DNA from: a virus
IMG/VR virus record: IMGVR_UViG_3300021963_000581
Coordinates: 1 to 25,947 of that record
Strand: one strand, 5' to 3'
Length of the DNA: 25,947 bases
Shown: piece after piece, positions 7,999-24,864 of the stretch
Numbering within the stretch: the stretch's first letter is position 1
Layout of the letters: every line of letters begins with the position of its first letter
The notes under the pieces: generated by a model
Database searches by the model: none
Seen by the model: the letters and a program-made list of their open reading frames with translations, nothing else
Told to the model about the DNA's origin: nothing
Position numbers and translations under genes: made by a program

Positions 7999-8463
7999 AT
8001 GAAATCACCACCAAATGATTACCTAAAATTTTGGAGGGTCATCAGGTACTATATGAAGGCAAAACACGGATTGGGTCAAGCAGACTTAGACATTATCCTG
8101 TTCCTTTACTCTGAAAGCTACTTCGGAAGAAAAGACTTTGATAGATTTGCTGAACTTGTAAGTTGGGAAGTAGATAGATTTGTTAGACTACACCAAGAAG
8201 GATGGATTGAAACATTTAGGAAAGGACGTGGACCACGCTCTAGGGCACTATACCAATTGTCATACAAGGCTACCCGTGTCGTTCTTGACATCTATAGAAA
8301 ACTAAATGGGGAAGAAATCCCCACTAGCTTGTCTTCTAATCCTATGTTTGCTAAAAATGTAAAGTATAGCGATAAAGTCTATCGTAATATGATTTTAGAA
8401 ATGAACAAGTACCAAAAAGCAAAACGAGTAGTAGCAAGAACTTCTCCCAAAGAAGAAGACTAG
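7999..8463 (+). CDS. Winged-helix-like protein, possible phage transcription regulator, on opposite strand to neighbours
   Basis: A 154-residue protein. Residues 20-90 fit a winged helix: GLGQADLDIILFLYSE, then a helix pair (RKDFDRFAELVSWEVDRFVRLHQEGWI) and a basic wing (RKGRGPRSRALYQLSYKA), as in MarR/PadR-type proteins. The C-terminus is basic. It is the only rightward gene inside the leftward late block. It starts 49 nt from the divergent small gene, and its TAG stop overlaps the groES TAG stop on the other strand through the shared CTAG at 8460-8463. Its isolated orientation suits a regulator of late transcription; a terminase small-subunit-like DNA-binding role is an alternative. The DNA-binding call is moderately sure. 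Confidence 0.65.
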   Translation: MKSPPNDYLKFWRVIRYYMKAKHGLGQADLDIILFLYSESYFGRKDFDRFAELVSWEVDRFVRLHQEGWIETFRKGRGPRSRALYQLSYKATRVVLDIYRKLNGEEIPTSLSSNPMFAKNVKYSDKVYRNMILEMNKYQKAKRVVARTSPKEED

Positions 8464-9247: not shown

Positions 9248-10850
9248 ATGTACGTGCCATTGTAATGATTGCATTAGTGCTAAGAATTGTTACTGCTACA
9301 CTGACAGCATTTTGTAACGCTGACCTTGTAACTTTCAACGGGTCAATAACACCCATCTCAATCAAGTCACCCATCTGACCGGTCTTCAAATTGTACCCGT
9401 GACCAACCGGAGTGCTATCCTTGTAAACATCACTTGGTTTAAGTCCTGCGTTCGTAAGTATCTGTTGGAATGGAGCCATAAGTGCATCTCTCAAAATGTG
9501 AAGTGCTGCATCATATTCCTTACTTGCCTCAGCATATGTGAACAAATCTGCTGACTCATCAAGTAATGCTTTGCCCGCACCCGGTAATATCCCTTCTTCA
9601 AGAGCAGAACGAACTGCACAAACAGCGTCATCAACTCTGTCATACAACTCTTTTTGCTCAAGGTCAGTCTGACCACCTACAAAAATTACGCCTATGCCAC
9701 CCGTAAGTGATGCAATACGCTCTAACAAAAAATCTTTGTCACCTTTTTTAGTTGCTTCTTTGTGTGCGTCCCATAACTGCTTAACTCTTTCGTCAACCAA
9801 AGCCTCGTCAGCCTTCGCTGTACTTCTTATAATCACCGTCTTATCTTTGCTAACTATTACCTTACCTGCGTGACCCAAGTCTCCGTAGTTGATATGGCTT
9901 AAGTCATCACCCGTCTTCTCGCTATAATAAGTTGCACCTACGCTAATTGCAATGTCTTGCATCAACTCGTGCTGCTTATAACCAAAGTTTGGTGGAGGCA
10001 CTGCCACCACTTTCAAATTCCCCTTAACTGAGTTCGCTGCAAGCGTGTTCACTACATTCGTGTTGCACGGAGAAATGATAAGTAACTTCTTGCCTTCTGA
10101 AATGATTGGTTTCAACACATTCTCAATTTGTAAAATATTCGCTATCTCCATATCACATACCAAAACCATAGTGTCTTCAAAGACACACTCGTCTTTTTTA
10201 GCATCATTGATAAACATCGGACTCAAATATCCTCTGTCAAATTTCAACCCTTTAGTGGTCTCTGCATACGTCTCATTTGTTTGGCTTCTTTCCACTGTCA
10301 CAATACCCGTCTTACCCACGTCCTTATAAACCTCAGCTATAATCCTTCCAATCTCTTTGTCGTTGTTTGCAGATATAGCCGCCACGTCCAATAACATTGC
10401 ACTACTGACCTTCTTTGCCTTACGTCTTAACTTGTCCACCACCTTGTTGCTTATGTCCACCATATGTCTTAATACCTCGGTTCTGTTCATATCCTCTTTG
10501 ATATGCTCAAGTCCTCCAAGTACCAATCCCTCTGTCAAAACAATTGCCGTTGTCGTTCCGTCACCCGCAGCGGTAGCTGTTTTGTCTGCCGCCTCTTTCA
10601 TCATCTTAACCGCAAGGTTCTCAGATGGGTCAATCAGGTCAATTGACTTAGCAACTGTTACACCATCCTTAGTAACCGTAATTCCGTGTGTGTGATGTGG
10701 ACTCTCAATTAGTACAGTGTTACCACTTGGTCCGAGTGTTGACTTAACAGCCTTTGACATCTTAACGACACCACTAATAAGTTTCTTTCTTCCTTCTGAA
10801 CCGAACTGCAAATCTTTGGGTGAGTACCCAATGCCTGATGTTTCTACCAT
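9231..10850 (-). CDS. groEL: Phage-encoded chaperonin GroEL (HSP60)
   Basis: A 539-residue full-length chaperonin that folds proteins in an ATP-driven ring. Signatures seen: TLGPSGNTVLI (38-48), TKDGVTVAKSI (60-70, Asp62 matching E. coli Asp52), GDGTTT (96-101), ISANND (159-164), DRGYLSP (205-211), and VDDAVCAVRSALEEGILPGAG (406-426, Asp408 matching the ATPase Asp398). A 10-residue N-terminal extension explains the numbering shift. The C-terminus ends RTYEQQQ and lacks the flexible GGM tail of bacterial GroEL. It is the first gene of the leftward late block, next to groES, so folding of capsid or fibre proteins is the likely role. A -7 promoter-like box and an inverted repeat lie in its leader. 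It is intact, with no sign of decay. Confidence 0.95.
   Translation of the reverse strand: MVETSGIGYSPKDLQFGSEGRKKLISGVVKMSKAVKSTLGPSGNTVLIESPHHTHGITVTKDGVTVAKSIDLIDPSENLAVKMMKEAADKTATAAGDGTTTAIVLTEGLVLGGLEHIKEDMNRTEVLRHMVDISNKVVDKLRRKAKKVSSAMLLDVAAISANNDKEIGRIIAEVYKDVGKTGIVTVERSQTNETYAETTKGLKFDRGYLSPMFINDAKKDECVFEDTMVLVCDMEIANILQIENVLKPIISEGKKLLIISPCNTNVVNTLAANSVKGNLKVVAVPPPNFGYKQHELMQDIAISVGATYYSEKTGDDLSHINYGDLGHAGKVIVSKDKTVIIRSTAKADEALVDERVKQLWDAHKEATKKGDKDFLLERIASLTGGIGVIFVGGQTDLEQKELYDRVDDAVCAVRSALEEGILPGAGKALLDESADLFTYAEASKEYDAALHILRDALMAPFQQILTNAGLKPSDVYKDSTPVGHGYNLKTGQMGDLIEMGVIDPLKVTRSALQNAVSVAVTILSTNAIITMARTYEQQQ
10171..10186. repeat. GTGTC-TTCAAA-GACAC palindrome inside groEL
   Basis: GTGTC (10171-10175) and GACAC (10182-10186) flank TTCAAA. 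It is the same hairpin family seen between rightward genes. Here it lies in the coding region for CVFEDT (222-227) of GroEL, so its sequence is partly explained by codons. Confidence 0.6.
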
Positions 10851-11958: not shown

Positions 11959-11976
11959 AGTGTCTTCAACGACACT
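11959..11976. repeat. AGTGTC-TTCAAC-GACACT hairpin in the leader region
   Basis: A 6-bp perfect stem with a 6-nt loop, the same family as the hairpins at 12863, 15106, 16278 and 20245. It is about 225 nt before the first rightward gene and upstream of the candidate promoter. I found no tRNA-like or ribozyme element directly after it. Confidence 0.6.
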
Positions 11977-12201: not shown

Positions 12202-12861
12202 ATGAGTAATCTACTCCAAATCGAAACAAGTTTCTTGAACTTGCCACAAATCAAGACAGCGTTGAATTTACAAGAGATTCGCAGTGTACAACGTACAATT
12301 CAGAATGGTCAGAAGAAAAAATTCGAGCAGACATTATCCCTATCAAAATTGGTATTGGGAGCAGTCAATTGGTTCGCATCGGAAGAGGGTCAACGTGTAT
12401 GTGCTGAGGAGGGGATAGTGTGGAACAATGAGGCAATCGGATTAAAAGTTTTTGGATGGCAGAAGTCATTTTTCTACAAGGTGATGAAAGCCGGTAAATT
12501 GGATGAGGTGGTGGTGTCAACGTTCAAGGCAAAGTGTGATGAGGCAGAGGCACAAGGTGAGGAACCTAATCGTTCATTGGAGGGGCTGTTGAAGTTCGCA
12601 AAGAATGTACACGTTGAAGGAGGTGGAAGTGGTGAGGGAGAAGGTGGAGAAGGTGAGAGTGAAATGGGTGACCCTGAGACCATTGGTGTGGAGGTGAGAG
12701 TGCCAACGATATTCACTATGACCTACAAGCCTGAGGGAGGTGTGAACGTGAGCATCAGAGTGGATGCCAATGGCGTAGTTAAGACCAACAATGAGGGAGT
12801 GCAGATTGATGAGGCAATTGCATTTTTGAAGTTGATAATGGCTAACAATGGCATAGTGTAA
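12202..12861 (+). CDS. First early gene: unknown two-domain protein with acidic Gly/Glu linker
   Basis: A 219-residue protein. Residues 1-137 are mainly helical and include FGWQKSFFYKVMKAGKLDEVV, reminiscent of a helix-turn-helix core. Residues about 139-156 are a Gly/Glu/Ser linker, and the C-terminus (IFTMTYKPEGGVNVSIRVDANG, then DEAIAFLKLI) looks like a small alpha/beta module. No family recognised. As the first gene after the presumed early promoter and the repeat hub it could be a DNA-binding regulator or an initiator acting on the TGTCGA repeats; this is inference from position. It is directly followed by a GTGTC hairpin and a tRNA-like element. Confidence 0.7.
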   Translation: MSNLLQIETSFLNLPQIKTALNLQEIRSVQRTIQNGQKKKFEQTLSLSKLVLGAVNWFASEEGQRVCAEEGIVWNNEAIGLKVFGWQKSFFYKVMKAGKLDEVVVSTFKAKCDEAEAQGEEPNRSLEGLLKFAKNVHVEGGGSGEGEGGEGESEMGDPETIGVEVRVPTIFTMTYKPEGGVNVSIRVDANGVVKTNNEGVQIDEAIAFLKLIMANNGIV

Positions 12862-12862
12862 G

Positions 12863-12878
12863 GTGTCCTCAAAGACAC
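12863..12878 (+). repeat. GTGTC-CTCAAA-GACAC hairpin after the first early gene
   Basis: A 5-bp perfect stem (extended by a G-T pair) with a 6-nt loop, starting 2 nt after the stop codon and ending 2 nt before tRNA-like element A. It would remain as the 3' end of the upstream mRNA if the element is cut at its 5' side. Confidence 0.7.
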
Positions 12879-12880
12879 TA

Positions 12881-12921
12881 TCTGAGAATGGTTTCAGGGA
12901 TGTTCGATTCATCCCCTCAGA
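12881..12921 (+). ncRNA. Minimal tRNA-like structure A (acceptor stem + D-loop motif + T-arm, no anticodon arm)
   Basis: TCTGAG (12881-12886) pairs with CTCAGA (12916-12921). GGGATG (12897-12902) pairs with CATCCC (12910-12915) around the loop TTCGATT (12903-12909), a perfect T-loop. Acceptor plus T-stem give 12 bp with no gap, the same total as in a tRNA (7+5). The connecting 10 nt (12887-12896) start AATGG, as in a D-loop able to contact the T-loop. There is no D-stem and no anticodon arm, so it cannot decode. RNase P recognises such mini-substrates, so a processing site is the likely role. Confidence 0.6.
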
Positions 12922-12955
12922 GCGAATCAAATTTTAAATTCAAAAACCACAATTT

Positions 12956-13873
12956 ATGCAACAAGGAATCGTTTACGGATTGACGGGAGAGTCAGCAAGA
13001 GGTAACGCTCACACGAGGTACCACCACAAGCCTGACCCATTATTTTTGAACAAAACAAAGTTCAAATCTGATGTCAGCGGATTAAAAAAAGCACAGCTAC
13101 GCCAAGCAATTTTGGAGACAGCTATGGAGATGACATCGAAGTTCACCATTGGAATGGAGGTGGAGAAAAACCAATTGCATAGAGGTGCAGTTAGGGAGTA
13201 CGAAATTTTCTGCGGATTTGAGGAGGATGGTAGCTGTGGCTACGAGGCAGTGACACACGTGTTACCATTGTTACCATCAGGTGTATGGCGTACAAAGGTG
13301 TACGATATGATGCACAAGGCAGAGCGAATCATCGATGATAGGTACAGCCCATCTGATAGACGTTGTGGTGGTCACATCACCATAGCTGTGGAGGGATTGA
13401 ATGGTGTGCAGTTGAATCGTGCTATCAGGAAGAATTGTGGCATCGTATTAGCGTTATTCAAAAAGAGACTGAACAGCAAATATTGTGGGTCAAATCGTAG
13501 GATGCAAGACCTGAGTGAGACCAACGTCAATTCGTGGGGAGGTGCATATGAGTATAGGTCAACACAAGCACACCACAAGTACCAAACAGCATTGGTGAAA
13601 GGTAAGTGTTTGGAGTTCAGAGTGCCGAGCAGATTCCAATCAGTAAAGCAGATGATGAGACGTTACGAGTTATTCTATGAGATAGTGAACTTTACTATCA
13701 ATAGACCTAATGGCACACACGATGCGTTACTTAAAATCCTTAAGCCTATCGTACTATCAATGTACAATGGTGACGTTGACAAGACGGATGAGGTGATAGC
13801 GTTATCAAAGCATTTCAGGAAGTTCATTATGAGAGGTGAGATACACCAAGACATCGCCACCTACCTTGCGTAG
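12956..13873 (+). CDS. Putative amidoligase (glutamine-synthetase-fold ligase, Amidoligase_2-like)
   Basis: A 305-residue protein. The motif order fits the amidoligase branch of the glutamine-synthetase/COOH-NH2 ligase fold: GMEVE (66-70, metal/ATP acidic pair), GYEAVT (95-100), CGGHITI (137-143, the GxHxx strand), and CLEFRVPS (218-225, the ExR element) followed by the helix MMRRYELFYEIVNF. Such enzymes use ATP to form amide or peptide bonds. The gene for a glutamine amidotransferase/gamma-glutamylcyclotransferase fusion lies about 1.3 kb downstream in the same operon, and I recall comparative studies linking these families in phages, so they probably act together in making or trimming a gamma-glutamyl-type modification. 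Substrate unknown. A tRNA-like element flanks it on each side. Confidence 0.72.
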   Translation: MQQGIVYGLTGESARGNAHTRYHHKPDPLFLNKTKFKSDVSGLKKAQLRQAILETAMEMTSKFTIGMEVEKNQLHRGAVREYEIFCGFEEDGSCGYEAVTHVLPLLPSGVWRTKVYDMMHKAERIIDDRYSPSDRRCGGHITIAVEGLNGVQLNRAIRKNCGIVLALFKKRLNSKYCGSNRRMQDLSETNVNSWGGAYEYRSTQAHHKYQTALVKGKCLEFRVPSRFQSVKQMMRRYELFYEIVNFTINRPNGTHDALLKILKPIVLSMYNGDVDKTDEVIALSKHFRKFIMRGEIHQDIATYLA

Positions 13874-13877
13874 GTGG
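13857..13877 (+). repeat. 8-bp hairpin overlapping the amidoligase stop codon
   Basis: CCACCTAC (13857-13864) and GTAGGTGG (13870-13877) are perfectly complementary around CTTGC. The stem includes the TAG stop at 13871-13873 and ends 5 nt before tRNA-like element B, taking the place held by the GTGTC hairpin at the other junctions. Confidence 0.7.
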
Positions 13878-13882
13878 TGGTA

Positions 13883-13942
13883 GCTGTGAATGGATGAGGA
13901 TGCGTAAGCAGACTCGTTGAGGGTTCGATTCCCTTACACAGC
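13883..13942 (+). ncRNA. tRNA-like structure B with GNRA hairpin in place of the anticodon arm
   Basis: GCTGTG (13883-13888) pairs with CACAGC (13937-13942). The T-arm GAGGG / CCCTT (13919-13923 / 13931-13935) encloses the loop TTCGATT. An AATGG motif (13889-13893) sits in the D-loop position. The middle folds as GAG-GA-TGC-GTAA-GCA-GA-CTC (13896-13915): two 3-bp stems stacked through a tandem G-A / G-A mismatch and capped by a GNRA tetraloop. This is not an anticodon loop, so it is not a decoding tRNA. A degenerate tRNA is the alternative. Confidence 0.6.
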
Positions 13943-13972
13943 CCTAAACCAAGTCCCGAGAGGGCAACAAAA

Positions 13973-14095
13973 ATGCAACCAATAATCTACAACGGAATGA
14001 CATTTCCGAACGAGAAAGCACTACACGAGTGGCGTATTATTTTCGAGTTCGACTATTTTATGGAGCAAGCAGAACAAAATTTATTAACCAATTAA
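13973..14095 (+). CDS. Short unknown protein after tRNA-like element B
   Basis: A 40-residue frame, MQPIIYNGMTFPNEKALHEW..., ending EQNLLTN. It starts 30 nt after element B and 9 nt after a CCC-GAGA-GGG mini-hairpin (13955-13964), with an ACAAAAATG start context. It ends 11 nt before the next gene. Residues 9-35 could be one amphipathic helix. No family recognised; support is packing only. Confidence 0.5.
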   Translation: MQPIIYNGMTFPNEKALHEWRIIFEFDYFMEQAEQNLLTN

Positions 14096-14106
14096 ATCTA
14101 ATCAAG

Positions 14107-14286
14107 ATGGACACACAAGAAAGGATGGAGTATGTACAAGACGTAATCGATAGACTCTTGTACTTAAAGGATGAAAAGCTAACCGAGTATCAGAACTACT
14201 TGGACGTATTAAAGGATGCCTATCCCATTGACGTAAAGATGGAGAATGGTATCAGAGTTTATCACACTAAAACCGAAGACAAATGA
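14107..14286 (+). CDS. Small acidic/helical unknown protein
   Basis: A 59-residue protein from MDTQERMEYVQDVIDRLL. I chose this ATG over one at 14029 because the longer form overlaps the preceding small gene. The first 45 residues form a likely amphipathic helix pair. Its TGA overlaps the next start (ATGA), so the two are translationally coupled. Function unknown. Confidence 0.6.
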   Translation: MDTQERMEYVQDVIDRLLYLKDEKLTEYQNYLDVLKDAYPIDVKMENGIRVYHTKTEDK

Positions 14287-14435
14287 AAGAGTTAAAGTTC
14301 AGATGGCTGTGGGTTGTCTTATCAGACAACATTCAGTGGGGTGCTTTCAGGTACAAAAAGGAGGCACAAGCCTTTGCTATCAGAATAGGTGGCAAAGTGG
14401 AAGGAAAGCGAAAATTAATCACCGATAAATATTAA
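14283..14435 (+). CDS. Small basic unknown protein
   Basis: A 50-residue frame, MKELKFRWLWVVLSDNIQWG..., with aromatic residues up front and a lysine-rich end (GKVEGKRKLITDKY). It shares an ATGA overlap with the upstream gene and ends 5 nt before the next. Alternating hydrophobics suggest a small beta-sheet domain. No family recognised. Confidence 0.5.
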   Translation: MKELKFRWLWVVLSDNIQWGAFRYKKEAQAFAIRIGGKVEGKRKLITDKY

Positions 14436-14440
14436 CCAAA

Positions 14441-14737
14441 ATGACAAAGGATTATCAACAAATGATGGAGGAGTTGTTCGTGGTGTACTACAAGCAATGC
14501 CCAAAGGAACGAATTAAGTATGCAATATACGACCCAACAAAGACTCAAGGGCATATCGTCTTAGATAATTGGATTGAGATTATCCACTTTACCAATTATC
14601 AGGGAGGGTATGCGATTAAGTTTGCAATTCAACGGGATAATGAAGAGTATTTTTTTAATAGTTATTTAGATGCTAAAAAATATTCAAGTATGCCTCTATA
14701 CGAGTTCAATGAGTATGTATTATCAATCACACTTTAA
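14441..14737 (+). CDS. Unknown early phage protein
   Basis: A 98-residue protein, MTKDYQQMMEELFVVYYKQ..., with aromatic-rich strands (HIVLDNWIEIIHFTNYQGGYAI) and a C-terminal YEFNEYVLSITL. No motif that I can name. Start follows an AACCAAA leader 5 nt after the previous gene; it ends 10 nt before the zinc-finger gene. Confidence 0.6.
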   Translation: MTKDYQQMMEELFVVYYKQCPKERIKYAIYDPTKTQGHIVLDNWIEIIHFTNYQGGYAIKFAIQRDNEEYFFNSYLDAKKYSSMPLYEFNEYVLSITL

Positions 14738-14747
14738 ATCAAATAAA

Positions 14748-15038
14748 ATGACAAGACCAAGCGATGTGTGGGAGTGTGCAAGTTGCTCACGTCCACAAGG
14801 ACGCCACGATATGTGGTTTGAGGATGACTTATGTGAAAGGTGCTACGAGAATCTGCCGAGGTGCAGAGGATGTGACACCAAAGATACCAAGCAGATAGTT
14901 GAGAGCAGATGCGATGCCTATGGGTATGGCACAGGGGATTGGTGCGACAAGTGTTATGACAGCAACAAGTACCCGTATCGTAAGGATAGGTACTTCGACC
15001 CATCGTATGCAGGTGAGAGGTTGGAGGATGATTACTAA
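14748..15038 (+). CDS. Small double zinc-ribbon/finger protein
   Basis: A 96-residue protein from MTRPSDVWECASC. I chose this ATG because it follows the A-rich leader AAATCAAATAAA right after the preceding stop. Four CxxC knuckles are visible: C10/C13, C29/C32, C39/C42 and C66/C69, plus Cys55, enough for two zinc sites. The C-terminus is acidic and aromatic (YRKDRYFDPSYAGERLEDDY). Such proteins bind nucleic acid or other proteins. Its position just before the amidotransferase-cyclotransferase fusion, which itself ends in a cysteine-rich domain, suggests a related adaptor role. Confidence 0.65.
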   Translation: MTRPSDVWECASCSRPQGRHDMWFEDDLCERCYENLPRCRGCDTKDTKQIVESRCDAYGYGTGDWCDKCYDSNKYPYRKDRYFDPSYAGERLEDDY

Positions 15039-15105
15039 AATAAATTTGGCAATGTCGAATTTATGTCTTATCTTCGTTCAATATCAGTTCAATAACAAGG
15101 GTTCT

Positions 15106-15121
15106 GTGTCTTCAAGGACAC
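15106..15121 (+). repeat. GTGTC-TTCAAG-GACAC hairpin before the amidotransferase gene
   Basis: A 5-bp stem with 6-nt loop in a 105-nt gap. The flanks AGGG and CCC match those of the 16278 copy. No ribozyme or tRNA-like element follows; the next gene starts 22 nt later. Confidence 0.65.
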
Positions 15122-15143
15122 TGCCCACAAACAAATTTAGCTT

Positions 15144-16262
15144 ATGTGTGTGATTATTATCAAGCAGAAGGGTAAGAGAATCCCTCGAGAGGTTGCAAAG
15201 ACTTCAGCGAACATCAATCCCCACGGATTGGGTATTATTTGGTTGGACACGTTCGAGGTTACTTACCATCAGTCTACAGCCTACAAGTTGTTAGACACTG
15301 AGCGACCATTCATTGCTCACTTCAGGTATGCCACCATTGGTGCTATCAATAGAGAGAACACGCATCCATTCAGATGCGGTAACAACAAGCAAGAGTGGTT
15401 GATGATGAACGGAACGATTAAGAATCTCGGTGATGCCAAGAAGAGTGACTCAAGAGTGTTGGCGGAGAACTTAGGTGAGATACCAAGACACAAGTGGAAG
15501 CAAGAGTTGGAAGGGTATGAGTGTAGGTTCGTGTCAGTCAACACGCACAGCAAGACGTATCAGATTTACAACAAAGAGTTGTGGACTCAAAGAGATGGTG
15601 TGTGGTACAGCAAGGACAATGTCATTGAGGACAATTTAATTGCTGTTTACGGCACGTTGAAGAAGGGGTATAACAACTACTACAGCTACCTGAGTACGTC
15701 CAAATTTGTGGCTAATGGTGAGACCAAGGATAAGTATCCGCTCATAGTCAGTGGACTACCTTACTTGATTGAGGAGCGTGGAGTAGGTTACAATGTGGAT
15801 GTGGACGTGTTCAGGGTGAGTAACACGACACTAAAGAATCTCGATAGATTGGAGGGTCATCCGGTGTGGTACAAGCGTAAGCAGATAGACATCAAGACCA
15901 AGACCGGAGTGCTTAAGTGTTGGGTGTACTTCAACATCAAAGAGACTGCGGGTGGTAAGGTGTATCACAAGAGTTATTCGCAGAAGGCGAAGCCCCTGAG
16001 TTTTTGGGAGAAGGAGGACGTGGTGGAGAGTAAAAAGTATGAGAGCATATTCAGTAACTATGGCTATGAGGAGCCTAAGAGTGTGTTCCTGACGAGTATA
16101 TTGGACGAGGAGTGTGATGACTGCGAGTTCGACATAGAGAATGAAAAGCCTATATGTGTGAATTGCTTTCAGGACTTACAGCACGATGCGTTCTCAAATT
16201 ATCATTGTAGTGGTTGCGATGAGTGGTTCACTGAGTCTGAGGTTTTACGATTCCAATCTTAG
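15144..16262 (+). CDS. Class II glutamine amidotransferase + gamma-glutamylcyclotransferase + zinc-ribbon fusion
   Basis: A 372-residue three-part protein. Residues 1-about 150 form an Ntn-type glutaminase: Cys2 becomes the N-terminal nucleophile after Met removal, followed by NPHGLGI (25-31), HFRYAT (59-64) and MNG (88-90). Residues about 165-265 are AIG2/GGCT-like: YGTLKKG (169-175, substrate loop) and LDRLEGHP (233-240) with Glu237 in the place of the catalytic acid. The C-terminus has CxxC pairs at 324/327, 338/341 and 355/358, a zinc ribbon. The first part would release ammonia from glutamine; the second cyclises and cleaves gamma-glutamyl amides. With the amidoligase upstream this suggests a phage pathway that builds and edits gamma-glutamyl bonds on an unknown target. 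A hairpin and hammerhead ribozyme follow it. Confidence 0.82.
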   Translation: MCVIIIKQKGKRIPREVAKTSANINPHGLGIIWLDTFEVTYHQSTAYKLLDTERPFIAHFRYATIGAINRENTHPFRCGNNKQEWLMMNGTIKNLGDAKKSDSRVLAENLGEIPRHKWKQELEGYECRFVSVNTHSKTYQIYNKELWTQRDGVWYSKDNVIEDNLIAVYGTLKKGYNNYYSYLSTSKFVANGETKDKYPLIVSGLPYLIEERGVGYNVDVDVFRVSNTTLKNLDRLEGHPVWYKRKQIDIKTKTGVLKCWVYFNIKETAGGKVYHKSYSQKAKPLSFWEKEDVVESKKYESIFSNYGYEEPKSVFLTSILDEECDDCEFDIENEKPICVNCFQDLQHDAFSNYHCSGCDEWFTESEVLRFQS

Positions 16263-16271
16263 ACTTGGCTT

Positions 16272-16299
16272 AGGGTGGTGTCCTCAAAGACACTGCCCT
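16272..16299 (+). repeat. Extended GTGTC-family hairpin before the hammerhead ribozyme
   Basis: The GTGTC-CTCAAA-GACAC core (16278-16293) is extended by tandem G-T wobbles and AGGG/CCCT to a continuous 11-bp stem. It begins 9 nt after the stop codon and its last base is the first base of ribozyme stem III, so ribozyme cleavage after 16304 leaves it at the 3' end of the upstream mRNA. Confidence 0.75.
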
Positions 16300-16350
16300 C
16301 CGTATCGAGATGAGTTGTCTCGACTGATGATTCCGAAAGGATGAAACGGA
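16299..16350 (+). ncRNA. Type III hammerhead self-cleaving ribozyme
   Basis: All core parts are present in order. Stem III is TCCGT (16299-16303) with ACGGA (16346-16350). The cleavage triplet is GTA (16302-16304, NUH rule), then stem I TCGAGA / TCTCGA (16305-16310 / 16318-16323) with a 7-nt loop. The conserved CTGATGA (16324-16330) follows, then stem II TCC / GGA capped by GAAA (16332-16341), then GAAA (16343-16346). Predicted cut is after A16304. The only weak point is a T-T pair at 10.1/11.1 at the base of stem II, where G-C is usual; this may slow cleavage. It lies between the amidotransferase fusion and a small gene starting 22 nt later. Confidence 0.85.
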
Positions 16351-16372
16351 AAGTTAATCAAAACCACAAAAA

Positions 16373-16597
16373 ATGCAAGTATTTAAAATCAACACGAGTG
16401 CGTGGGGGGAAGAAGACTTCTACCTTATGACATCCTTAGATGAGGAGCAAATCAAAAAAATCATTCAGCCAATGGTTGACTACGAAAGGGAGAATGACAT
16501 TATGTACGACAACGAGGACTACATAAATGCTTTAGAGCAGAGGTATCCCAAGGCGACTATTAAACTTTATCAAGACTTTGAACTTATCACATTCTAA
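16373..16597 (+). CDS. Small acidic unknown protein after the ribozyme
   Basis: A 74-residue acidic protein, MQVFKINTSAWGEEDFYLM..., helix-rich in the middle (DEEQIKKIIQPMVDYERENDI). Its start follows AACCACAAAAA 22 nt after the hammerhead, so ribozyme cleavage would place it at the 5' end of a new message. No family recognised. Confidence 0.6.
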   Translation: MQVFKINTSAWGEEDFYLMTSLDEEQIKKIIQPMVDYERENDIMYDNEDYINALEQRYPKATIKLYQDFELITF

Positions 16598-16607
16598 ATT
16601 AAAAAAA

Positions 16608-16739
16608 ATGAAAATTTCAACATCAATCAGGAAAGACGGATTCAAGTTAACAATATTGCCAACGATTCAATACTACTACGCCTATCGTAATGTAGTTTTT
16701 GTATGGCTTAACTATGAATTGCAAATCCATATCATATGA
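16608..16739 (+). CDS. Short unknown protein
   Basis: A 43-residue frame, MKISTSIRKDGFKLTILPT..., rich in Tyr and hydrophobics in its second half (IQYYYAYRNVVFVWLNYEL). It starts after an A-run leader 10 nt past the preceding stop and overlaps the next start (ATATGA). Packing is the only support. Confidence 0.45.
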   Translation: MKISTSIRKDGFKLTILPTIQYYYAYRNVVFVWLNYELQIHII

Positions 16740-16897
16740 CAAAAGAGTTATTATCAGTCATAGCTAATATGCTATTTTTTATTATGATATCACTGCCTAT
16801 AGCTATTATGCTGTATGCAGTGGTAGTTGTAATGAGTTTAGTAAAAGAGTTAATAATCAAAACCAAATCAATATGTCAAAAAATCACTACGAGATGA
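16736..16897 (+). CDS. Short single-span membrane protein
   Basis: A 53-residue frame, MTKELLSVIANMLFF..., with one long hydrophobic stretch (about residues 6-36, LSVIANMLFFIMISLPIAIM and on through YAVVVVMSL) and a basic C-terminus (KELIIKTKS). It overlaps the previous gene by 4 nt and the next by 25 nt. A small early membrane protein could alter host entry or metabolism; nothing in the sequence says which. Confidence 0.45.
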   Translation: MTKELLSVIANMLFFIMISLPIAIMLYAVVVVMSLVKELIIKTKSICQKITTR

Positions 16898-17187
16898 CAC
16901 AGAGTGCTACGGCACAAATCGAAATCGACTTTCTTCGGGATGAGGTAAAGCGATTAAAAGAAAAGTTAAATGACGTGGCAACAGCACGTGCGTTACTAAA
17001 AAGCAAAGGGTACTTTACTGAGAACCTATGGTGCGTTGATGACGTCACTCAAAACTACAAGTGTAGTCGTGACAAGGCTTACGATGTGCTTGACAAAGCA
17101 ATGAGTAACGAGGCAACTATAAACCAAATCTTTTTTGCCATCGATGATGTATGTGACGATTTAGAAATCAAAAAATTAAAAGACTAA
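16873..17187 (+). CDS. Small coiled-coil early phage protein
   Basis: A 104-residue protein. Residues 14-45 are a coiled coil (IEIDFLRDEVKRLKEKLND). Then comes KGYFTENLWCVDDVTQNYKCSRDKAYDVLDKAMSNE, which I recall from small uncharacterised proteins of Bacteroidota and their phages. Its TAA shares the A of the next ATG. Function unknown. Confidence 0.65.
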   Translation: MSKNHYEMTQSATAQIEIDFLRDEVKRLKEKLNDVATARALLKSKGYFTENLWCVDDVTQNYKCSRDKAYDVLDKAMSNEATINQIFFAIDDVCDDLEIKKLKD

Positions 17188-17375
17188 TGAAAAGTAAAAA
17201 AATGCCGATAGCGGTTAAAAAGCAAGTTGATATGTACTTTCTTATGCTCTATGAGTTTATGGGAGACTTTCAGGAGAAGCTAACAAAGGAGTACGAGGCT
17301 ATTCCAAAAAGAAAAAAGAAATTTAGCTACGAACAATTCGTGGTTGCTGTATTCACTAATTTAATATTAAAGTAA
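17187..17375 (+). CDS. Small basic unknown protein
   Basis: A 62-residue protein, MKSKKMPIAVKKQVDMYFLM..., with a lysine-rich patch (PKRKKKFSYEQF) between two hydrophobic helices. It overlaps the previous stop by 1 nt (TAATG) and ends 1 nt before the next gene. No family recognised. Confidence 0.6.
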   Translation: MKSKKMPIAVKKQVDMYFLMLYEFMGDFQEKLTKEYEAIPKRKKKFSYEQFVVAVFTNLILK

Positions 17376-17376
17376 A

Positions 17377-17613
17377 ATGGAAAATCAAATCAATGGTACG
17401 CCAAAGGCGACCTTCTATCTAAACGAGTTGGCATCAGAGATGACAGCTTTATTTATCGAAATCAAGTACGAGGGGCAGAACGTCCCCTTGTACGACATCA
17501 ACAAAGATGAGGACGACAATGGAGAGATGAGTTACACTGAGAAAATTCAAGACGAGTTTAACGAGGTGTATGACAAAGTGGAATCATATTTAATGGAAAA
17601 TAAAATCAACTAA
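17377..17613 (+). CDS. Small acidic unknown protein
   Basis: A 78-residue protein, MENQINGTPKATFYLNELAS..., with a strongly acidic middle (DINKDEDDNGEMSYTEKIQDE). It starts MENQ, as does the next small gene, and both have an AAAATGG start context, suggesting local duplication of the leader. Function unknown. Confidence 0.6.
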   Translation: MENQINGTPKATFYLNELASEMTALFIEIKYEGQNVPLYDINKDEDDNGEMSYTEKIQDEFNEVYDKVESYLMENKIN

Positions 17614-17614
17614 A

Positions 17615-17773
17615 ATGGAAAATCAAAAAACAACAATCGAAGTAAACGTATGTTTTTACGTGGATGAGGCGACAGGTAAGAAGGTTTATGACTTTGAAGA
17701 GATGGCTGATGAGTTTGAGCAGAAGCTATCCGAGTTAGATGAAAGCGTAGTAGTAATGGTATCAATTCAATAA
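17615..17773 (+). CDS. Short acidic unknown protein
   Basis: A 52-residue frame, MENQKTTIEVNVCFYVDEAT..., with strand-like ends (TIEVNVCFYV; ESVVVMVSIQ) around an acidic helix (DFEEMADEFEQKLSELDE), a compact beta-alpha-beta pattern. It starts 1 nt after the preceding stop. No family recognised. Confidence 0.55.
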   Translation: MENQKTTIEVNVCFYVDEATGKKVYDFEEMADEFEQKLSELDESVVVMVSIQ

Positions 17774-17789
17774 AATAAAATCAAATAAA

Positions 17790-18185
17790 ATGGAAATCAA
17801 AATCATCCAAGGAGTAAAGCGAGAAGTCTTAGAAGATGTTTTCGTAACAGCATTAGAAGGTGGCAGTAACTATTGGTACTACCTACCTGAGGATTCAATC
17901 AAAGCAATCCGCAAAGCGGTACCTAAGAGCGAAGACCCGTATCTTAGCACAGCCATTTTAAAGGCTATTTTAGACCACGATGTAAAGGTGCCTATCAATG
18001 ATGCCGAGAACGAAGATGAGGTCATAGGCGTCATTACACGTGGCACTATGCAATCACGATTGCAGTTGCTTGCAGATAGTTCAAACAAGTGGGCATTAGA
18101 AAGACACATTAAAGAAGAAGGGGACGCTGAGTCTGCTGACATTGTGTTCCAATACCTAACAATGGGTGAGGTTGTTTATGGGTAA
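17790..18185 (+). CDS. Conserved-type small phage protein of unknown function
   Basis: A 131-residue protein, MEIKIIQGVKREVLEDVFVT, followed by ALEGGSNYWYYL. The EGGSNYWY motif is one I recall in many small phage proteins without an assigned function. The remainder is helical with an acidic C-terminus (ESADIVFQYLTMGEVVYG). Its start has the AAATCAAATAAAATGG context typical of this phage. Confidence 0.7.
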   Translation: MEIKIIQGVKREVLEDVFVTALEGGSNYWYYLPEDSIKAIRKAVPKSEDPYLSTAILKAILDHDVKVPINDAENEDEVIGVITRGTMQSRLQLLADSSNKWALERHIKEEGDAESADIVFQYLTMGEVVYG

Positions 18186-18211
18186 TTTATTAAAAATTTA
18201 AATTTAAAAAA

Positions 18212-18433
18212 ATGGAGAAGTTTATTGACAGCGGTAGGTTTACAAGAAAAATGGCATTCCTTGATAAGAATCCAATGGAGAAGTTGCTTGATGATTGCAC
18301 TGACGTAGTTCAGTACGAGGGTGGTGCATACATACAAGTTTTAAAGTCGGGTATATTTTATTTAGATGAGAGTTTCAGCAGTCGCTCACTTGATGAAGCG
18401 GAAGTAAAATTGTTGGAAAAAATTAACAAATAA
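18212..18433 (+). CDS. Small unknown early protein
   Basis: A 73-residue protein, MEKFIDSGRFTRKMAFLDKN..., with a mixed strand/helix pattern (GAYIQVLKSGIFYLDES then LDEAEVKLLEKINK). Start preceded by a long A/T-rich leader. No family recognised. Confidence 0.55.
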   Translation: MEKFIDSGRFTRKMAFLDKNPMEKLLDDCTDVVQYEGGAYIQVLKSGIFYLDESFSSRSLDEAEVKLLEKINK

Positions 18434-18489
18434 ATGAACGATATGTGAACATATTGTCGTATGTTTGTTGTCTTAAATTAAATTATATT

Positions 18490-18792
18490 ATGAAACACGA
18501 TGTTTTCAATCAGTACGTAGAAAGGGTTTCAGACTTGTTTGGAATAAGCAAGGACGAAATCTTTTCTAAGTCGAAGAAGAGGGAGTTGGTAGATGCAAGG
18601 CATCTTGTGTACTACCTATGTTCAAAGAGACCTATGCAAGTTACCTATATCCAAAAGTATATGAACGAGGCGGGGTATGACATTAAACACTCATCCATTA
18701 TCCACGGCATCTCTGCGGTTGAGCAGAAGATTGCAGAAGACAAGGACTATGTCTCAGTGGTGAAGGATGTAGAGAGGGCAGTTTTTATTTAG
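18490..18792 (+). CDS. Stand-alone DnaA domain-IV-like DNA-binding protein
   Basis: A 100-residue protein from MKHDVFNQYVERVSDLFGIS (an in-frame ATG at 18445 is less likely, since it would add an unusual CC-containing leader). Residues 11-81 match the C-terminal DNA-binding domain of the replication initiator DnaA: ISKDEIFSKSKKRELVDARHLVYYL followed by a helix-turn-helix with HSSIIHGI in the position of the DnaA signature (DHTTVLHA). There is no AAA+ domain. It would bind DnaA-box-like DNA at the phage or host origin, either to recruit replication proteins or to compete with host DnaA. The next genes encode annealing protein, exonuclease and SSB, so it belongs to a replication-recombination module. 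Confidence 0.78.
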   Translation: MKHDVFNQYVERVSDLFGISKDEIFSKSKKRELVDARHLVYYLCSKRPMQVTYIQKYMNEAGYDIKHSSIIHGISAVEQKIAEDKDYVSVVKDVERAVFI

Positions 18793-18831
18793 TCGGTTAT
18801 CAATCTATCAAATCAAATACAATCAAATCAA

Positions 18832-19479
18832 ATGGAAAAGAAACTTCCGGTTTTCGAGAGGCTATCCGCCATCAACGTCAATGACCACGTTGAAAAGAAA
18901 AGCAATCTAACTTATTTATCTTGGGCTTGGGCTTGGTCAAAGACAAAGACCGAGTGTCCTGATGCCACGTACAAAATCTTAGAGACCGAGTATGACGAGG
19001 CTCTTGGATTTATGTGCCACACTAATGTAACCATCGAGGGCGAGACGCTTGAGATGTGGTTACCGGTGATGGATGGTGCGAACAAGTCAATGAAGAAGAC
19101 TGAGTACAGCTATAGTTCACGCTATGGCGACAAGAAGGTCGAGGCAGCGACAACATTCGACATCAACAAAACCATTATGCGTTGCTTGGTTAAAAACTTA
19201 GCGATGTTTGGGTTGGGGATTTATATCTATGCCGGTGAGGATTTACCTGAGGGAGAGACAAACGTGAAGCCTACAGCCCCATCACAGCCATTGAAAGAGA
19301 TGAAGGCAGATGGGTTACCTGACTTAAAGAAGGGTACTGAGAATTGGGATGCTGTTGTGAAATACGTAACGGCAAACAAGTCGTTAGGTATTACAAAGAT
19401 TGGTGCTCAGTTGGTACGCAAGTACAAGGTAAGCCCTACGTTAAAGAAAGAAATTGCTAACCTAATAACAGCAGAATAA
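18832..19479 (+). CDS. Single-strand annealing protein, Sak3/DUF1071-like
   Basis: A 215-residue protein. Residues 11-40 (LSAINVNDHVEKKSNLTYLS then WAWAWSKTKTECPDATYKI) match the signature of DUF1071, known as Sak3-type phage annealing proteins. DINKTIMRCLVKNLAMFGLGIYIYAGED (about 115-143) is the other conserved block. It would pair complementary single strands in phage recombination. The exonuclease gene starts on the last base of its stop codon (TAATG), the usual annealase-nuclease pairing. The C-terminal 60 residues look like a variable tail. The family call relies on memory of the motif. Confidence 0.78.
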   Translation: MEKKLPVFERLSAINVNDHVEKKSNLTYLSWAWAWSKTKTECPDATYKILETEYDEALGFMCHTNVTIEGETLEMWLPVMDGANKSMKKTEYSYSSRYGDKKVEAATTFDINKTIMRCLVKNLAMFGLGIYIYAGEDLPEGETNVKPTAPSQPLKEMKADGLPDLKKGTENWDAVVKYVTANKSLGITKIGAQLVRKYKVSPTLKKEIANLITAE

Positions 19480-20225
19480 TGGAAGAGCAAGTATCAGAAA
19501 TTATAACGTTGCTCAGAGATGACAACGAGTATTACAATGGGTATGGCAAGAACTATTTATCCAATTCAGACATAGGTGTGTTGCTCAACAATCCTCAGGA
19601 CTTCGGTAAGACCCGTGAGGACAACAAAGCATTTATGGATGGCAGATACTTTCACCAATTAATCTTGGAGCCTGAGAAGGCGAAGGCTATGCCATTTGTA
19701 GATGTGAGCACACGTACAACGAAAGAGTATAAAGCATTCTGCGAAGATAATAACCTACCATTTTGTATGTTAAAGAAGGAGCAAGATGAGATTCAAAACC
19801 TTGTAAGTATTATCAATGGGAACATTGCGTTCTATGATGAGATTTACAAATCAGGTAATGAGTACGAGACTCCGGCAGTTGGAACGATTCAAGGAAGGAT
19901 GTGGAAAGGGAAGGCGGACATCGTTACGGACAATGCAGTGATTGACCTTAAGACTACAAGCGACATTCACAAGTTCAAGTACACTGCTAAGCAGTACAAC
20001 TACGATAGTCAGTGTTATATTTATCAGGAGTTATTTGGTAAGCCATTAGTATTCTATGTAATTGACAAGGGCACCGGAGTTCTTGGTATCTTTAGACCAA
20101 CGGAAGAATTTGTAAAAGGTGGCGAAATAAAAGTAGGAAGAGCGATTGAGATATATGATAAATATTTTAGTGCTTACCCATCAGACGATATAGTTAATTA
20201 CTACATTGACGAGTACTTGTTATAA
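19479..20225 (+). CDS. PD-(D/E)XK exonuclease, RecE/DUF3799-like recombination partner
   Basis: A 248-residue nuclease-fold protein. The N-terminal YLSNSDIGVLLNNPQDF and DGRYFHQLILEPEKA (His59) are typical of RecE-like phage nucleases. The active site reads GKAD (Asp147), IDLKTT (Asp156, Lys158) and YNYDSQCYIYQ (Gln178, Tyr180), i.e. the D-x(n)-(D/E)xK plus QxxxY pattern. It would resect double-stranded ends for the annealing protein encoded directly upstream with a 1-nt overlap. A hairpin and a tRNA-like element follow its stop, marking an mRNA boundary before the SSB-like gene. Confidence 0.82.
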   Translation: MEEQVSEIITLLRDDNEYYNGYGKNYLSNSDIGVLLNNPQDFGKTREDNKAFMDGRYFHQLILEPEKAKAMPFVDVSTRTTKEYKAFCEDNNLPFCMLKKEQDEIQNLVSIINGNIAFYDEIYKSGNEYETPAVGTIQGRMWKGKADIVTDNAVIDLKTTSDIHKFKYTAKQYNYDSQCYIYQELFGKPLVFYVIDKGTGVLGIFRPTEEFVKGGEIKVGRAIEIYDKYFSAYPSDDIVNYYIDEYLL

Positions 20226-20244
20226 TATTGCACCCCCGAAGCAA

Positions 20245-20260
20245 GTGTCCTTAAAGACAC
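20245..20260 (+). repeat. GTGTC-CTTAAA-GACAC hairpin after the exonuclease gene
   Basis: A 5-bp stem with 6-nt loop, 19 nt after the stop codon and 4 nt before tRNA-like element C. Same family as 12863 and 16278. Confidence 0.7.
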
Positions 20261-20264
20261 AGGA

Positions 20265-20355
20265 TGTCAGATAGCTTAATGGTCATAATTAAATTGACCC
20301 TTGAGGAATTAGAGCACTCGCAAGAGATGGTGTGGGTTCGATTCCCACTCTGACG
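20265..20355 (+). ncRNA. tRNA-like structure C with D-loop insertion and GNRA mini-arm instead of anticodon arm
   Basis: The 7-bp acceptor TGTCAGA / TCTGACG (20265-20271 / 20349-20355, last pair T-G) is followed by T8-A9 (TA). The D-stem GCTT / GAGC (20274-20277 / 20312-20315) has the D-loop motif AATGG, and the T-arm GTGGG / CCCAC (20332-20336 / 20344-20348) has the loop TTCGATT. The spacer before the T-arm is 5 nt, as in tRNA. Two things break the tRNA: about 26 extra nt in the D-loop (from 20284 to about 20309), and an anticodon arm cut to CTC-GCAA-GAG (20317-20326), a GNRA hairpin. The 3' end reads ACAAC, not CCA. A degenerate tRNA or a tRNA with an insert are alternatives. Confidence 0.65.
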
Positions 20356-20374
20356 ACAACTAATTTTTAACTTA

Positions 20375-20412
20375 GCCTCAGAGGTTAATGATTGGTATAA
20401 ATAGACTGAGGC
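20375..20412 (+). repeat. 7-bp inverted repeat in the leader of the SSB-like gene
   Basis: GCCTCAG (20375-20381) and CTGAGGC (20406-20412) are perfect complements with a 24-nt loop, ending 20 nt before the start codon. It could control translation of the SSB-like gene or shape the 5' end after processing of element C. Confidence 0.5.
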
Positions 20413-20776: not shown

Positions 20777-20803
20777 GGGGGAGTGAAAACTTCCCCTTTT
20801 TTT
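20777..20803 (+). terminator. Intrinsic terminator closing the early rightward operon
   Basis: GGGGGAG (20777-20783) pairs with CTTCCCC (20790-20796) through seven pairs including one G-T, with a 6-nt loop, followed directly by seven T. It lies 30 nt after the SSB-like stop codon. Confidence 0.85.
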
Positions 20804-20824
20804 ACCTCTAATGCGTGACGAAAA

Positions 20825-23409: not shown

Positions 23410-24864
23410 ATGATAGAACGTACTTCAGGATATGACAACAAGGCAATGTGGGAATACTGCGAGACACTGAAAAATGTTGTGACTCAAACCAAAGAGGTAA
23501 AGTCAGGCAGAGGTAAAGCAGTAGAGATTAGAAAGGTTTTAAAGTATAACACTGATATGCAAACAATAGCAAACATCATAGATAGTGCTACGCATTACAG
23601 AGAGTTATACGAATCAGAAGAGAAAGGAGAGATAGTACTTAGGGACTATCAAGTTGATATTGTTAATAGAGGATATACTATAATTAGTACATATCGATTC
23701 TTGTATCTTGCTATGGAGGTGCGTACCGGTAAGACGCTAACAAGCCTTGCAATAGCAAAGCTGTGTGGTGTTGAGAATGTGTTGTTCATTACAAAAAAGA
23801 AAGCAATTAGTTCAATTGAAGCCGACTACACTGCGTTAAACACAAACTACCACCTACGTGTCATCAACTATGAAAGCCTACACCTCGTTATGAACGACAA
23901 GAAATGGGACATCGTTATTTGTGATGAAGCACATTGTATGGGTGCGTTTCCTAAGCCAAGTGGACGTGCGGAGTTGGTAAGCCAAGTGGTGAGAGTTTAT
24001 AAGACTATGGTTATTTTATTGTCAGGTACACCAACGCCTGAGTCTTACTCGCAGATGTACCATCAAGTATGCTTCCTTCCAACAAATCCATTTAGGGAGT
24101 TTAGGAACTTCTATAGATTCTCTGACGTACACGTTGACGTAAAACAAAAAAAGATTAATGGACTATTCATAAAAGATTATAGTCACGGCAGAGACTCTAT
24201 CCTTAAACTGATGGAGCCGTATACTATTAACTACACACAAGCAGAGGCAGGCTTTAATTCAGAGACCACTGAAGAGGTGTTAGAGGTTGAGATGAGTGAG
24301 TTGACTTATAAAATTATAAAAAAATTAAAGAAAGATTTGGTTGTAGAAGGAAAAGAAAATATAATTTTAGCAGACACTCCCGTTAAATTGATGATGAAAG
24401 TGCATCAGTTGTGCAGTGGTACTATTAAGTTTGAGAACGGAGACTCAATGATAATAGACTTAAGCAAGGCTGAGTTTATAAAGAAAAGATTTAAAGGTTG
24501 TAAGATTGGTATATTCTATAAGTTCAAAGAAGAGTTGAATGCATTATGTCAAGTTTTTGGTGAAGAAAACTTGACAACAGAGTTAAGTGTCTTTGAGGAC
24601 ACCGATAAAAGCATAGCATTACAGATTGTGAGTGGGCGTGAGGGTATCAGTCTAAAGCAAGCAAAGTATTTGGTTTACTACAACATTGACTTCAGTGCTA
24701 CAAGTTATTGGCAGAGCAAAGACCGGATGACAACAAAGGAGAGACTTGAGAATCAGATATATTGGATTTTCTCTAAGGGTGGTATTGAATATGATATATA
24801 CAAGGCTGTAACGAAGAAAAAAGATTATACTCTAAAGCATTTTGAAAAAACACTAATTTTGTAG
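23410..24864 (+). CDS. SF2 (SNF2/DEAH-like) helicase
   Basis: A 484-residue helicase. Motifs in order: Q-like LRDYQVDIV (77-85), Walker A RTGKT (105-109), Ia-like FITKKKAISS, DEAH box (172-175), motif III SGTPTPESY (205-213), and in the second RecA domain IVSGREGISLKQA followed by SATSYWQSKDRMTTKER near residue 440 (motif VI with its arginines). The size and lack of accessory domains fit the compact SNF2-like helicases common in phages, which remodel replication or recombination forks. It starts 9 nt after the primase-helicase. The codons at 24587-24602 contain a copy of the GTGTC palindrome. Confidence 0.85.
   Translation: MIERTSGYDNKAMWEYCETLKNVVTQTKEVKSGRGKAVEIRKVLKYNTDMQTIANIIDSATHYRELYESEEKGEIVLRDYQVDIVNRGYTIISTYRFLYLAMEVRTGKTLTSLAIAKLCGVENVLFITKKKAISSIEADYTALNTNYHLRVINYESLHLVMNDKKWDIVICDEAHCMGAFPKPSGRAELVSQVVRVYKTMVILLSGTPTPESYSQMYHQVCFLPTNPFREFRNFYRFSDVHVDVKQKKINGLFIKDYSHGRDSILKLMEPYTINYTQAEAGFNSETTEEVLEVEMSELTYKIIKKLKKDLVVEGKENIILADTPVKLMMKVHQLCSGTIKFENGDSMIIDLSKAEFIKKRFKGCKIGIFYKFKEELNALCQVFGEENLTTELSVFEDTDKSIALQIVSGREGISLKQAKYLVYYNIDFSATSYWQSKDRMTTKERLENQIYWIFSKGGIEYDIYKAVTKKKDYTLKHFEKTLIL
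24587..24602. repeat. GTGTC-TTTGAG-GACAC palindrome inside the SF2 helicase gene
   Basis: It encodes VFEDT, the same five residues encoded by the palindrome inside groEL. The match may come from the protein sequence or from selection for the DNA/RNA motif. Confidence 0.55.

What the first reader, a model, noticed from the sequence alone, without database searches (positions are those of the whole stretch)
12863..20355. Four junctions share a hairpin-plus-cleavable-RNA module, a possible phage mRNA-splitting system
At 12863-12921, 13857-13942, 16272-16350 and 20245-20355 a stable hairpin lies at or just after a stop codon. It is followed within 0-6 nt by a structured RNA expected to be cut at or near its 5' side, and then, 22-77 nt later, by the next gene. 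In one case the RNA is a hammerhead ribozyme; in three it is a tRNA-like fold (shared TTCGATT loop and AATGG motif) without a decoding arm, a kind of substrate RNase P can cut. In each case the cut would leave the upstream message ending in the hairpin, protected from 3' decay, and start a new 5' end for the next gene. Seen: complementarity and spacing. Known: hammerheads self-cleave, RNase P accepts tRNA-like mini-substrates. Inferred: the elements are interchangeable parts of one system.
Basis: partly seen in the sequence, partly recalled or inferred. Interest (0 to 1): 0.92.

Follow-up and report, generated by a model that had tools for sequence, protein, structure and literature searches.

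The report
Phage gene-end hairpin plus RNA cutter
In a large family of bacterial viruses, the ends of several early genes carry a small RNA hairpin followed at once by an element expected to cut the message there, either a self-cutting hammerhead ribozyme or a stripped-down tRNA look-alike of the kind RNase P can cut, and related viruses have swapped one kind for the other at the same spot.

Summary
The 16299-16350 element is a type III hammerhead. In 81 related phage loci plus the window, a structural scan finds 64 hammerheads on the coding strand, none on the other strand and none in a reversed control; stems covary. Nearly all directly follow a hairpin after a stop codon. The 12881 and 13883 elements belong to a "mini-TLS" class: 12-bp acceptor/T helix, GTTCRANTC loop, GG-bearing linker, which matches what RNase P measures. 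At the junction after gene B, 69 of 86 relatives have a hammerhead and 8, the window among them, a mini-TLS. A gene-B tree needs at least four HHR/TLS changes, so "interchangeable" is supported.

Two corrections. The hairpin core in three of the four modules (GTGTCCTYAAAGACAC) is a dispersed 16-bp palindrome that also lies inside genes, so it is probably a DNA binding site too; only next to hammerheads is it extended into a longer hairpin. The 20265 element is a longer tRNA-like RNA that never alternates with hammerheads there, although its class is widespread in phages. RNase P cutting and 3' protection remain untested.

The parts
12202..12861 (+). early gene A (219 aa, no Pfam/PHROG match); upstream message of module 1
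12862..12879 (+). module 1 hairpin (core GTGTCCTCAAAGACAC 12863-12878), begins next to the stop codon of A
12881..12921 (+). module 1 mini-TLS: 6-bp acceptor + 6-bp T stem (12 bp), TTCGATT loop, linker AATGGTTTCA; predicted RNase P cut 12880/12881
   Evidence: a hammerhead or mini-TLS follows 12 of 66 A genes
12956..13873 (+). early gene B (305 aa, no Pfam/PHROG match)
13853..13881 (+). module 2 hairpin, 12 bp, contains the stop codon of gene B; not of the GTGTC type
13883..13942 (+). module 2 mini-TLS with a 29-nt linker holding a small stem-loop; predicted RNase P cut 13882/13883; orthologous junctions carry a hammerhead in 69 of 86
15144..16262 (+). gene H: glutamine amidotransferase-like + gamma-glutamyl cyclotransferase domains
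16273..16298 (+). module 3 hairpin: GTGTC palindrome extended by 5 outer pairs (GGGTG/TGCCC)
16299..16350 (+). module 3 type III hammerhead; predicted self-cut 16304/16305
19479..20225 (+). gene T: exonuclease VIII-like (PDDEXK)
20245..20260 (+). module 4 hairpin GTGTCCTTAAAGACAC, no outer extension
20265..20355 (+). module 4 long TLS: 7-bp acceptor + 5-bp T stem, D-arm-like 5' part, 3-bp/GCAA arm in place of an anticodon arm; predicted RNase P cut 20264/20265
20777..20804 (+). intrinsic terminator-like site (8-bp stem + T7) after the last gene of the block; the four module hairpins are not flagged as terminators
15106..15121 (+). GTGTC palindrome without cutter, before gene H
11960..11975 (+). 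GTGTC palindrome upstream of gene A, no cutter
10171..10186 (-). GTGTC palindrome inside groEL
24587..24602 (+). GTGTC palindrome inside the helicase gene (SVFEDT codons); kept in about 45 relatives

Best explanation
These are intercistronic mRNA-splitting modules of the phage's early operon. Each is a stable hairpin at the end of a reading frame, followed at 0-6 nt by a cis element that gives a precise cut at or near its own 5' side. The cut comes from the RNA itself (hammerhead: after 16304, leaving a 2',3'-cyclic phosphate upstream and a 5'-OH downstream) or from host RNase P acting on a tRNA-like minihelix (before 12881, 13883 and probably 20265). Either way the upstream message ends just behind a hairpin, and the downstream message starts with a folded RNA and a short A-rich leader. 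The two cutters are functional equivalents that replace one another in evolution. Shown: the elements, their structures and covariation, their placement, and the swaps. Inferred from known biochemistry: cutting by hammerhead and RNase P. Inferred only: that the hairpin protects the 3' end and that the purpose is separate control of the amounts of the early messages. The GTGTC-type hairpin very probably has a second role as a DNA binding site.
For: 64/0/0 hammerheads; covariation on 49 distinct hammerheads: 98.5% of cells paired against 75.0% shuffled and about 43% slid, 12 of 17 pairs with two-sided changes, score 0.668 against 0.230; 98 of 98 covariance-model hits on the coding strand in 63 further loci; in whole records 1-4 per phage, clustered within a few kb, 17 of 22 records positive. 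Strong hairpin upstream of 56 of 59 hammerheads against 22% in shuffles and 21% after ordinary stops; 19 hammerheads have hairpins of unrelated sequence, 16 of them abutting with 0 nt; GTGTC palindromes next to hammerheads have 4.19 outer pairs on average, elsewhere 0.43-0.93 (p < 1e-8). Mini-TLS: 11-13 bp (mostly exactly 12) from T-loop to 5' end, invariant G53-TTC-R-A-C61, GG in a 9-11-nt linker, 97.7% of cells paired against 52.5% when re-paired between sequences, 8 of 12 sit exactly 1 nt behind a hairpin. RNase P is known to cut acceptor/T-arm models and is thought to measure the 12 bp between T-loop and 5' end (PMC11143913). Swaps at orthologous junctions: after B 69 HHR / 8 mini-TLS / 9 none, after A 4 / 8 / 54, after H 43 / 2 / 46; at least 4 HHR/TLS changes on the gene-B tree. 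No terminator at the modules; a terminator-like site ends the block at 20777.
Against: No RNA data. The window hammerhead has U-U at the usually G-C pair next to the core in stem II (11 of the 49 aligned lack a standard pair there), so it may be slow. The 3' trailers are GCG, CCT and ACA, not RCCA, which weakens RNase P recognition. Beside TLSs the GTGTC palindrome shows no extra pairing, and 4 of the 8 mini-TLS after B were scored without a strong hairpin. At the exonuclease junction the TLS never alternates with a hammerhead. Starred branches alone force only one HHR/TLS change.
Confidence: 0.72

Rival explanations
1. The GTGTC hairpin is chiefly a DNA site: a phage-specific 16-bp operator or 'stoperator' bound by a dimeric regulator (for example the lone + strand gene 7999-8463, whose positional counterpart in MW202828 is annotated as a repressor). 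Its place behind stop codons is where such sites do no harm, and it is next to cutters only by co-location.
For: Same palindrome inside groEL and helicase, in minus-strand genes, and upstream of gene A; helicase copy kept at nucleotide level in about 45 genomes; clade-specific versions (GTGTCGTTAACGACAC 14 times in MW202828, where no hammerhead is found; GTCTC type 5 times in L168). Cluster A mycobacteriophage stoperators are a precedent for dispersed repressor sites (PMC9283540, abstract).
Against: Does not explain the 19 hammerheads with unrelated hairpins, nor the outer-stem extension seen only beside hammerheads, nor the non-GTGTC hairpins of the window's module 2 and L163. It says nothing about what the cutters do.
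Confidence: 0.2
2. The tRNA-like elements serve as tRNA mimics (decoys for tRNA-processing, charging or tRNA-targeting enzymes) and do not cut messages; only the hammerheads split mRNA.
Against: Mini-TLSs keep only the part RNase P reads and sit where orthologues have hammerheads; a free decoy would not need that position.
Confidence: 0.15
3. The hairpins are transcription terminators or attenuators.
For: Hairpins directly after stop codons.
Against: No T-tract; only 2 of 64 have 5 T in the next 8 nt; the scan flags none of the four but does flag 20777.
Confidence: 0.03
4. Relic tRNAs and stray ribozymes without function.
For: ARAGORN calls almost none of them tRNA.
Against: Strong covariation, strand bias and fixed position.
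Confidence: 0.02

Closest known systems
Type III hammerhead ribozymes in phages and bacteria (Perreault et al. 2011, PMC3088659)
   Same: Catalytic core, three stems, location in phage intergenic regions; several cases in one polycistronic RNA were shown to cleave; in haloviruses HF1/HF2 a message 5' end maps within 3 nt of the cut.
   Different: Here several per genome at fixed early-gene junctions, each with a hairpin directly 5', and replaceable by a tRNA-like element.
Model RNase P substrates (acceptor stem/T stem/T loop, e.g. AT1) and natural non-tRNA substrates such as phage P1/P7 C4 RNA and a polycistronic mRNA (PMC11143913)
   Same: 12-bp helix, T-loop, expected cut at the 5' end of the helix.
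   Different: Natural, covarying minihelices at phage gene junctions, with a GG linker and no RCCA; cutting not shown.
tRNA punctuation of mitochondrial transcripts (from memory)
   Same: RNAs cut at tRNA structures between genes.
   Different: Not tRNAs, and the slot is shared with a ribozyme.
RNase III processing of T7 early mRNA (from memory)
   Same: Early phage operon cut between genes, messages ending in a hairpin.
   Different: Different cutters; the hairpin is not itself the cut structure.
Theta ribozymes next to phage tRNAs (PMC10879173)
   Same: Small ribozyme and tRNA combined in phages of Bacteroidota and Bacillota.
   Different: HDV-like fold, cuts at the 3' end of real tRNAs; the passages read mention no hairpin module.

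Membership tests
Type III hammerhead ribozyme (16299-16350) | Core CUGANGA ... GAAA with U16.1-A15.1 and non-G cleavage base | tested here: met
   Sequence
Type III hammerhead ribozyme (16299-16350) | Three helices, kept by compensatory change | tested here: met
   98.5% paired, 12 of 17 pairs with two-sided change
Type III hammerhead ribozyme (16299-16350) | Usual G-C pair 10.1-11.1 | tested here: inconclusive
   Not a standard pair in 11 of 49 including the window (U-U there); G-C in 38; conserved rather than strictly defining
Type III hammerhead ribozyme (16299-16350) | Self-cleavage | not testable with these tools
   needs in vitro transcription
Transfer RNA (20265-20355, 12881-12921, 13883-13942) | Anticodon arm, 5-bp stem and 7-nt loop | tested here: not met
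   20265: 3-bp stem with GCAA; the others have no such arm; ARAGORN none, although Rfam tRNA scores 37.8 for 20265
RNase P substrate (mini-TLS) | About 12 bp from T-loop to 5' end with T-loop contacts (G53, C56, A58, C61) | tested here: met
   criterion from PMC11143913
RNase P substrate (mini-TLS) | 3' RCCA pairing with the enzyme RNA | tested here: not met
   Trailers GCG, CCT, ACA in the window; helpful to, not defining of, substrates
RNase P substrate (mini-TLS) | Cut at the predicted 5' end | not testable with these tools
   needs biochemistry
Operator/stoperator set (GTGTC palindrome) | Many copies dispersed over the genome including non-gene-end sites, clade-specific sequence | tested here: met
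Operator/stoperator set (GTGTC palindrome) | Bound by a phage repressor | not tested
   needs binding assay; candidate gene 7999-8463
Intrinsic terminator | GC-rich hairpin followed by a T-tract | tested here: not met

The most novel reading that the evidence does not exclude
A general phage mRNA-punctuation cassette, 'hairpin + any precise RNA cutter', in which unrelated cutters (type III, rarely type I, hammerheads; RNase P mini-substrates; perhaps a third unknown RNA seen at the same junction in L044/L373 and L362) are freely exchanged in evolution.
Probability: 0.5. Interest if true: 0.92.

Novelty: new variant of a known kind. Interest (0 to 1): 0.84.

Why it matters
It would give a concrete job to phage hammerheads, whose role is mostly unknown, and would show evolution replacing a self-cutting ribozyme by a minimal RNase P substrate in the same slot, a natural test of functional equivalence. 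It also gives many ready-made small candidate RNase P substrates and hairpin-coupled hammerheads for study.

Tried and rejected
Megablast of the region against the phage collection: no match. Origin of the long TLS from a host tRNA: rejected, its 23-nt 3' half is in only 6 stretches from 84,980 species genomes, all MAG contigs. 'Every TLS has a hairpin': rejected for the widespread class (33 of 144 against 15% in shuffles). Structured middle of the long TLS: no clear signal (mean z -0.6). Terminator reading: rejected. MAFFT alignment A2 of mini-TLSs put the 5' strand out of register by one, so pairs were counted by script instead. ARAGORN's intron mode calls many 'tRNAs with introns', judged over-permissive because the middles differ in every copy. 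Literature searches found no description of the combined module (open-access papers only).
Full report
What the window is. The window is a whole IMG/VR virus record of 25,947 bases. Its closest named relative is the circular 60,850-base podovirus MW202828.1 from a Florida spring (76.6% identity over the primase-like protein). The + strand block from gene A (12202) to a small single-strand-binding-like protein (ending 20747) holds what look like early genes: gamma-glutamyl cyclotransferase/amidotransferase, Sak single-strand annealing protein, exonuclease VIII-like nuclease. A terminator-like site follows at 20777. In the phage collection, weaker primase matches are mainly to phages of Bacteroidota hosts. 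The primase search found 582 relatives in IMG/VR, 80 of which were fetched.

The observation. All four modules fold as described. The hammerhead is found by Rfam (E 6e-4, below its gathering score), and the 20265 element by the Rfam tRNA model above its gathering score; ARAGORN calls no tRNA.

Hammerheads. A scan that asks only for the core and three stems finds 64 in 81 relatives plus the window, all on the coding strand, none on the other strand, none in reversed sequence. On 49 distinct ones the stems are kept by compensatory change (98.5% paired cells against 75.0% shuffled and about 43% slid; covariation 0.668 against 0.230 +/- 0.012). A covariance model built from them gives 98 matches in 63 further loci (some of these overlap the same phages), all on the coding strand, and in whole records only 1-4 per phage, clustered within a few kilobases.

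The hairpin in front. 56 of 59 hammerheads have a strong hairpin ending within 12 nt upstream, against 22% in shuffles and 21% after ordinary stop codons. In 40 cases it is the GTGTC palindrome; in 19 it has an unrelated sequence, and in 16 of these 19 it abuts the hammerhead with 0 nt. GTGTC palindromes beside hammerheads are extended by 4.19 outer pairs on average; those beside TLSs, inside genes or elsewhere, or behind stop codons without a cutter by 0.43, 0.43 and 0.93 (p from 8e-9 to 6e-18). So a hairpin in the RNA is a selected partner of the hammerhead.

A correction. The 16-bp palindrome itself is not confined to gene ends. In the window it also lies inside groEL, inside the helicase gene and upstream of gene A. 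In about 45 relatives the helicase copy is kept at the nucleotide level, and clades have their own versions. This is how a dispersed operator or stoperator behaves, and the hairpins of modules 1, 3 and 4 probably double as DNA sites. Module 2 has a different 12-bp hairpin and escapes this objection.

The tRNA-like elements. They fall in two classes. Mini-TLSs (40-60 nt; window 12881 and 13883) have no D or anticodon arm; acceptor and T stem stack to 11-13 bp, mostly exactly 12; the loop is GTTCRANTC; a linker of usually 9-11 nt carries GG, as in a D loop; 97.7% of cells are paired against 52.5% when strands are re-paired between sequences (the sequences were found by a scan that asks for pairing, so the strand and reversed controls are the cleaner test). 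They occur 12 times in sense, never antisense or in control, and 8 of the 12 start exactly 1 nt after a hairpin. RNase P cuts acceptor/T-arm models and is thought to measure the 12 bp between T-loop and 5' end (PMC11143913), so cuts at 12880/12881 and 13882/13883 are the natural prediction. Long TLSs (window 20265) have in addition a D-arm-like part and a variable middle. The middle differs between copies, the base before the element is T in 117 of 144, and most lack a hairpin.

Interchangeability. At the junction after gene B, 86 distinct relatives show 69 hammerheads, 8 mini-TLSs (window, L163, L336, L346, L347, L348, L351, L372) and 9 neither. After gene A the numbers are 4, 8 and 54; after gene H 43, 2 and 46 (plus 1 long TLS); after the exonuclease gene 0 hammerheads and 18 TLSs in 89. 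A tree of 82 gene-B proteins needs at least four changes between hammerhead and TLS, although well-supported branches alone force only one. Counts are of distinct sequences, not independent events, and the detector used for this table was a loosened one without its own control. L424 appears to carry a type I hammerhead after gene H (read from the sequence; Rfam lists that stretch only as a weak hammerhead match).

Mechanism. Most likely the early transcript is cut at these junctions, by itself or by RNase P, so that each upstream piece ends just behind a hairpin and each downstream piece begins with a folded RNA and a short A-rich leader (median 22 nt, 77% A+T). Shown: structures, covariation, place, swaps. 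Inferred from known biochemistry: cutting. Inferred only: stabilisation and separate dosage control. Known precedents for parts of this are phage hammerheads whose cut matches a mapped 5' end (PMC3088659) and RNase P substrates among phage and polycistronic RNAs (PMC11143913). I found no paper that describes the combined module, within an open-access library only.

Noticed in passing
window 20359-20412 (5' leader of the SSB-like gene at 20433): Conserved H-type pseudoknot (GCCTCAG with CTGAGGC through the loop of an 8-bp stem) in front of a small protein with an acidic SSB-like tail; 22 relatives, 93.3% of cells paired against 85.8% shuffled, 9 of 15 pairs with two-sided change, 0 of 500 shuffles as high. 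Reminiscent of the T4 gene 32 autoregulatory pseudoknot (from memory). No Rfam match at E <= 1 in the window.
   Followed up: partly
L044 8634-8672 (same phage L373, L410), L362 4965-5010, L465 1389-1427: Possible third element: hairpin with conserved loop CAGAAACGG and bulge ATTTGG, stems differing between phages; in L373 and L362 it sits at the gene-B junction in phages nested among hammerhead carriers; directly behind a hairpin in L044 and L465. No Rfam match.
   Followed up: partly
IMG/VR loci L205-L324: Widespread phage-specific tRNA-Leu-like RNA AGTCAGGTGGCGGAATTGGTAGACGC ... CAGGTTCGAATCCTGTCCTGACTAC with a hypervariable middle and no encoded CCA, up to 7 copies in 5 kb, on contigs up to 270 kb.
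   Followed up: partly
window 10171, 11960, 12863, 15106, 16278, 20245, 24587; MW202828.1: Dispersed 16-bp palindrome, probably the operator of a phage regulator; MW202828 has its own version 14 times. The lone + strand gene 7999-8463 lies where MW202828 has an annotated repressor, so it is a candidate binder.
   Followed up: partly
L225, L233, L240, L167, L170, L183, L201, L126 (9277-9297): Another recurrent hairpin, TGACAGCTCGGAAAGACGAGCA with varying stem (CTCG, CTTG, ACCGG), directly before long TLSs in other phages.
   Followed up: no
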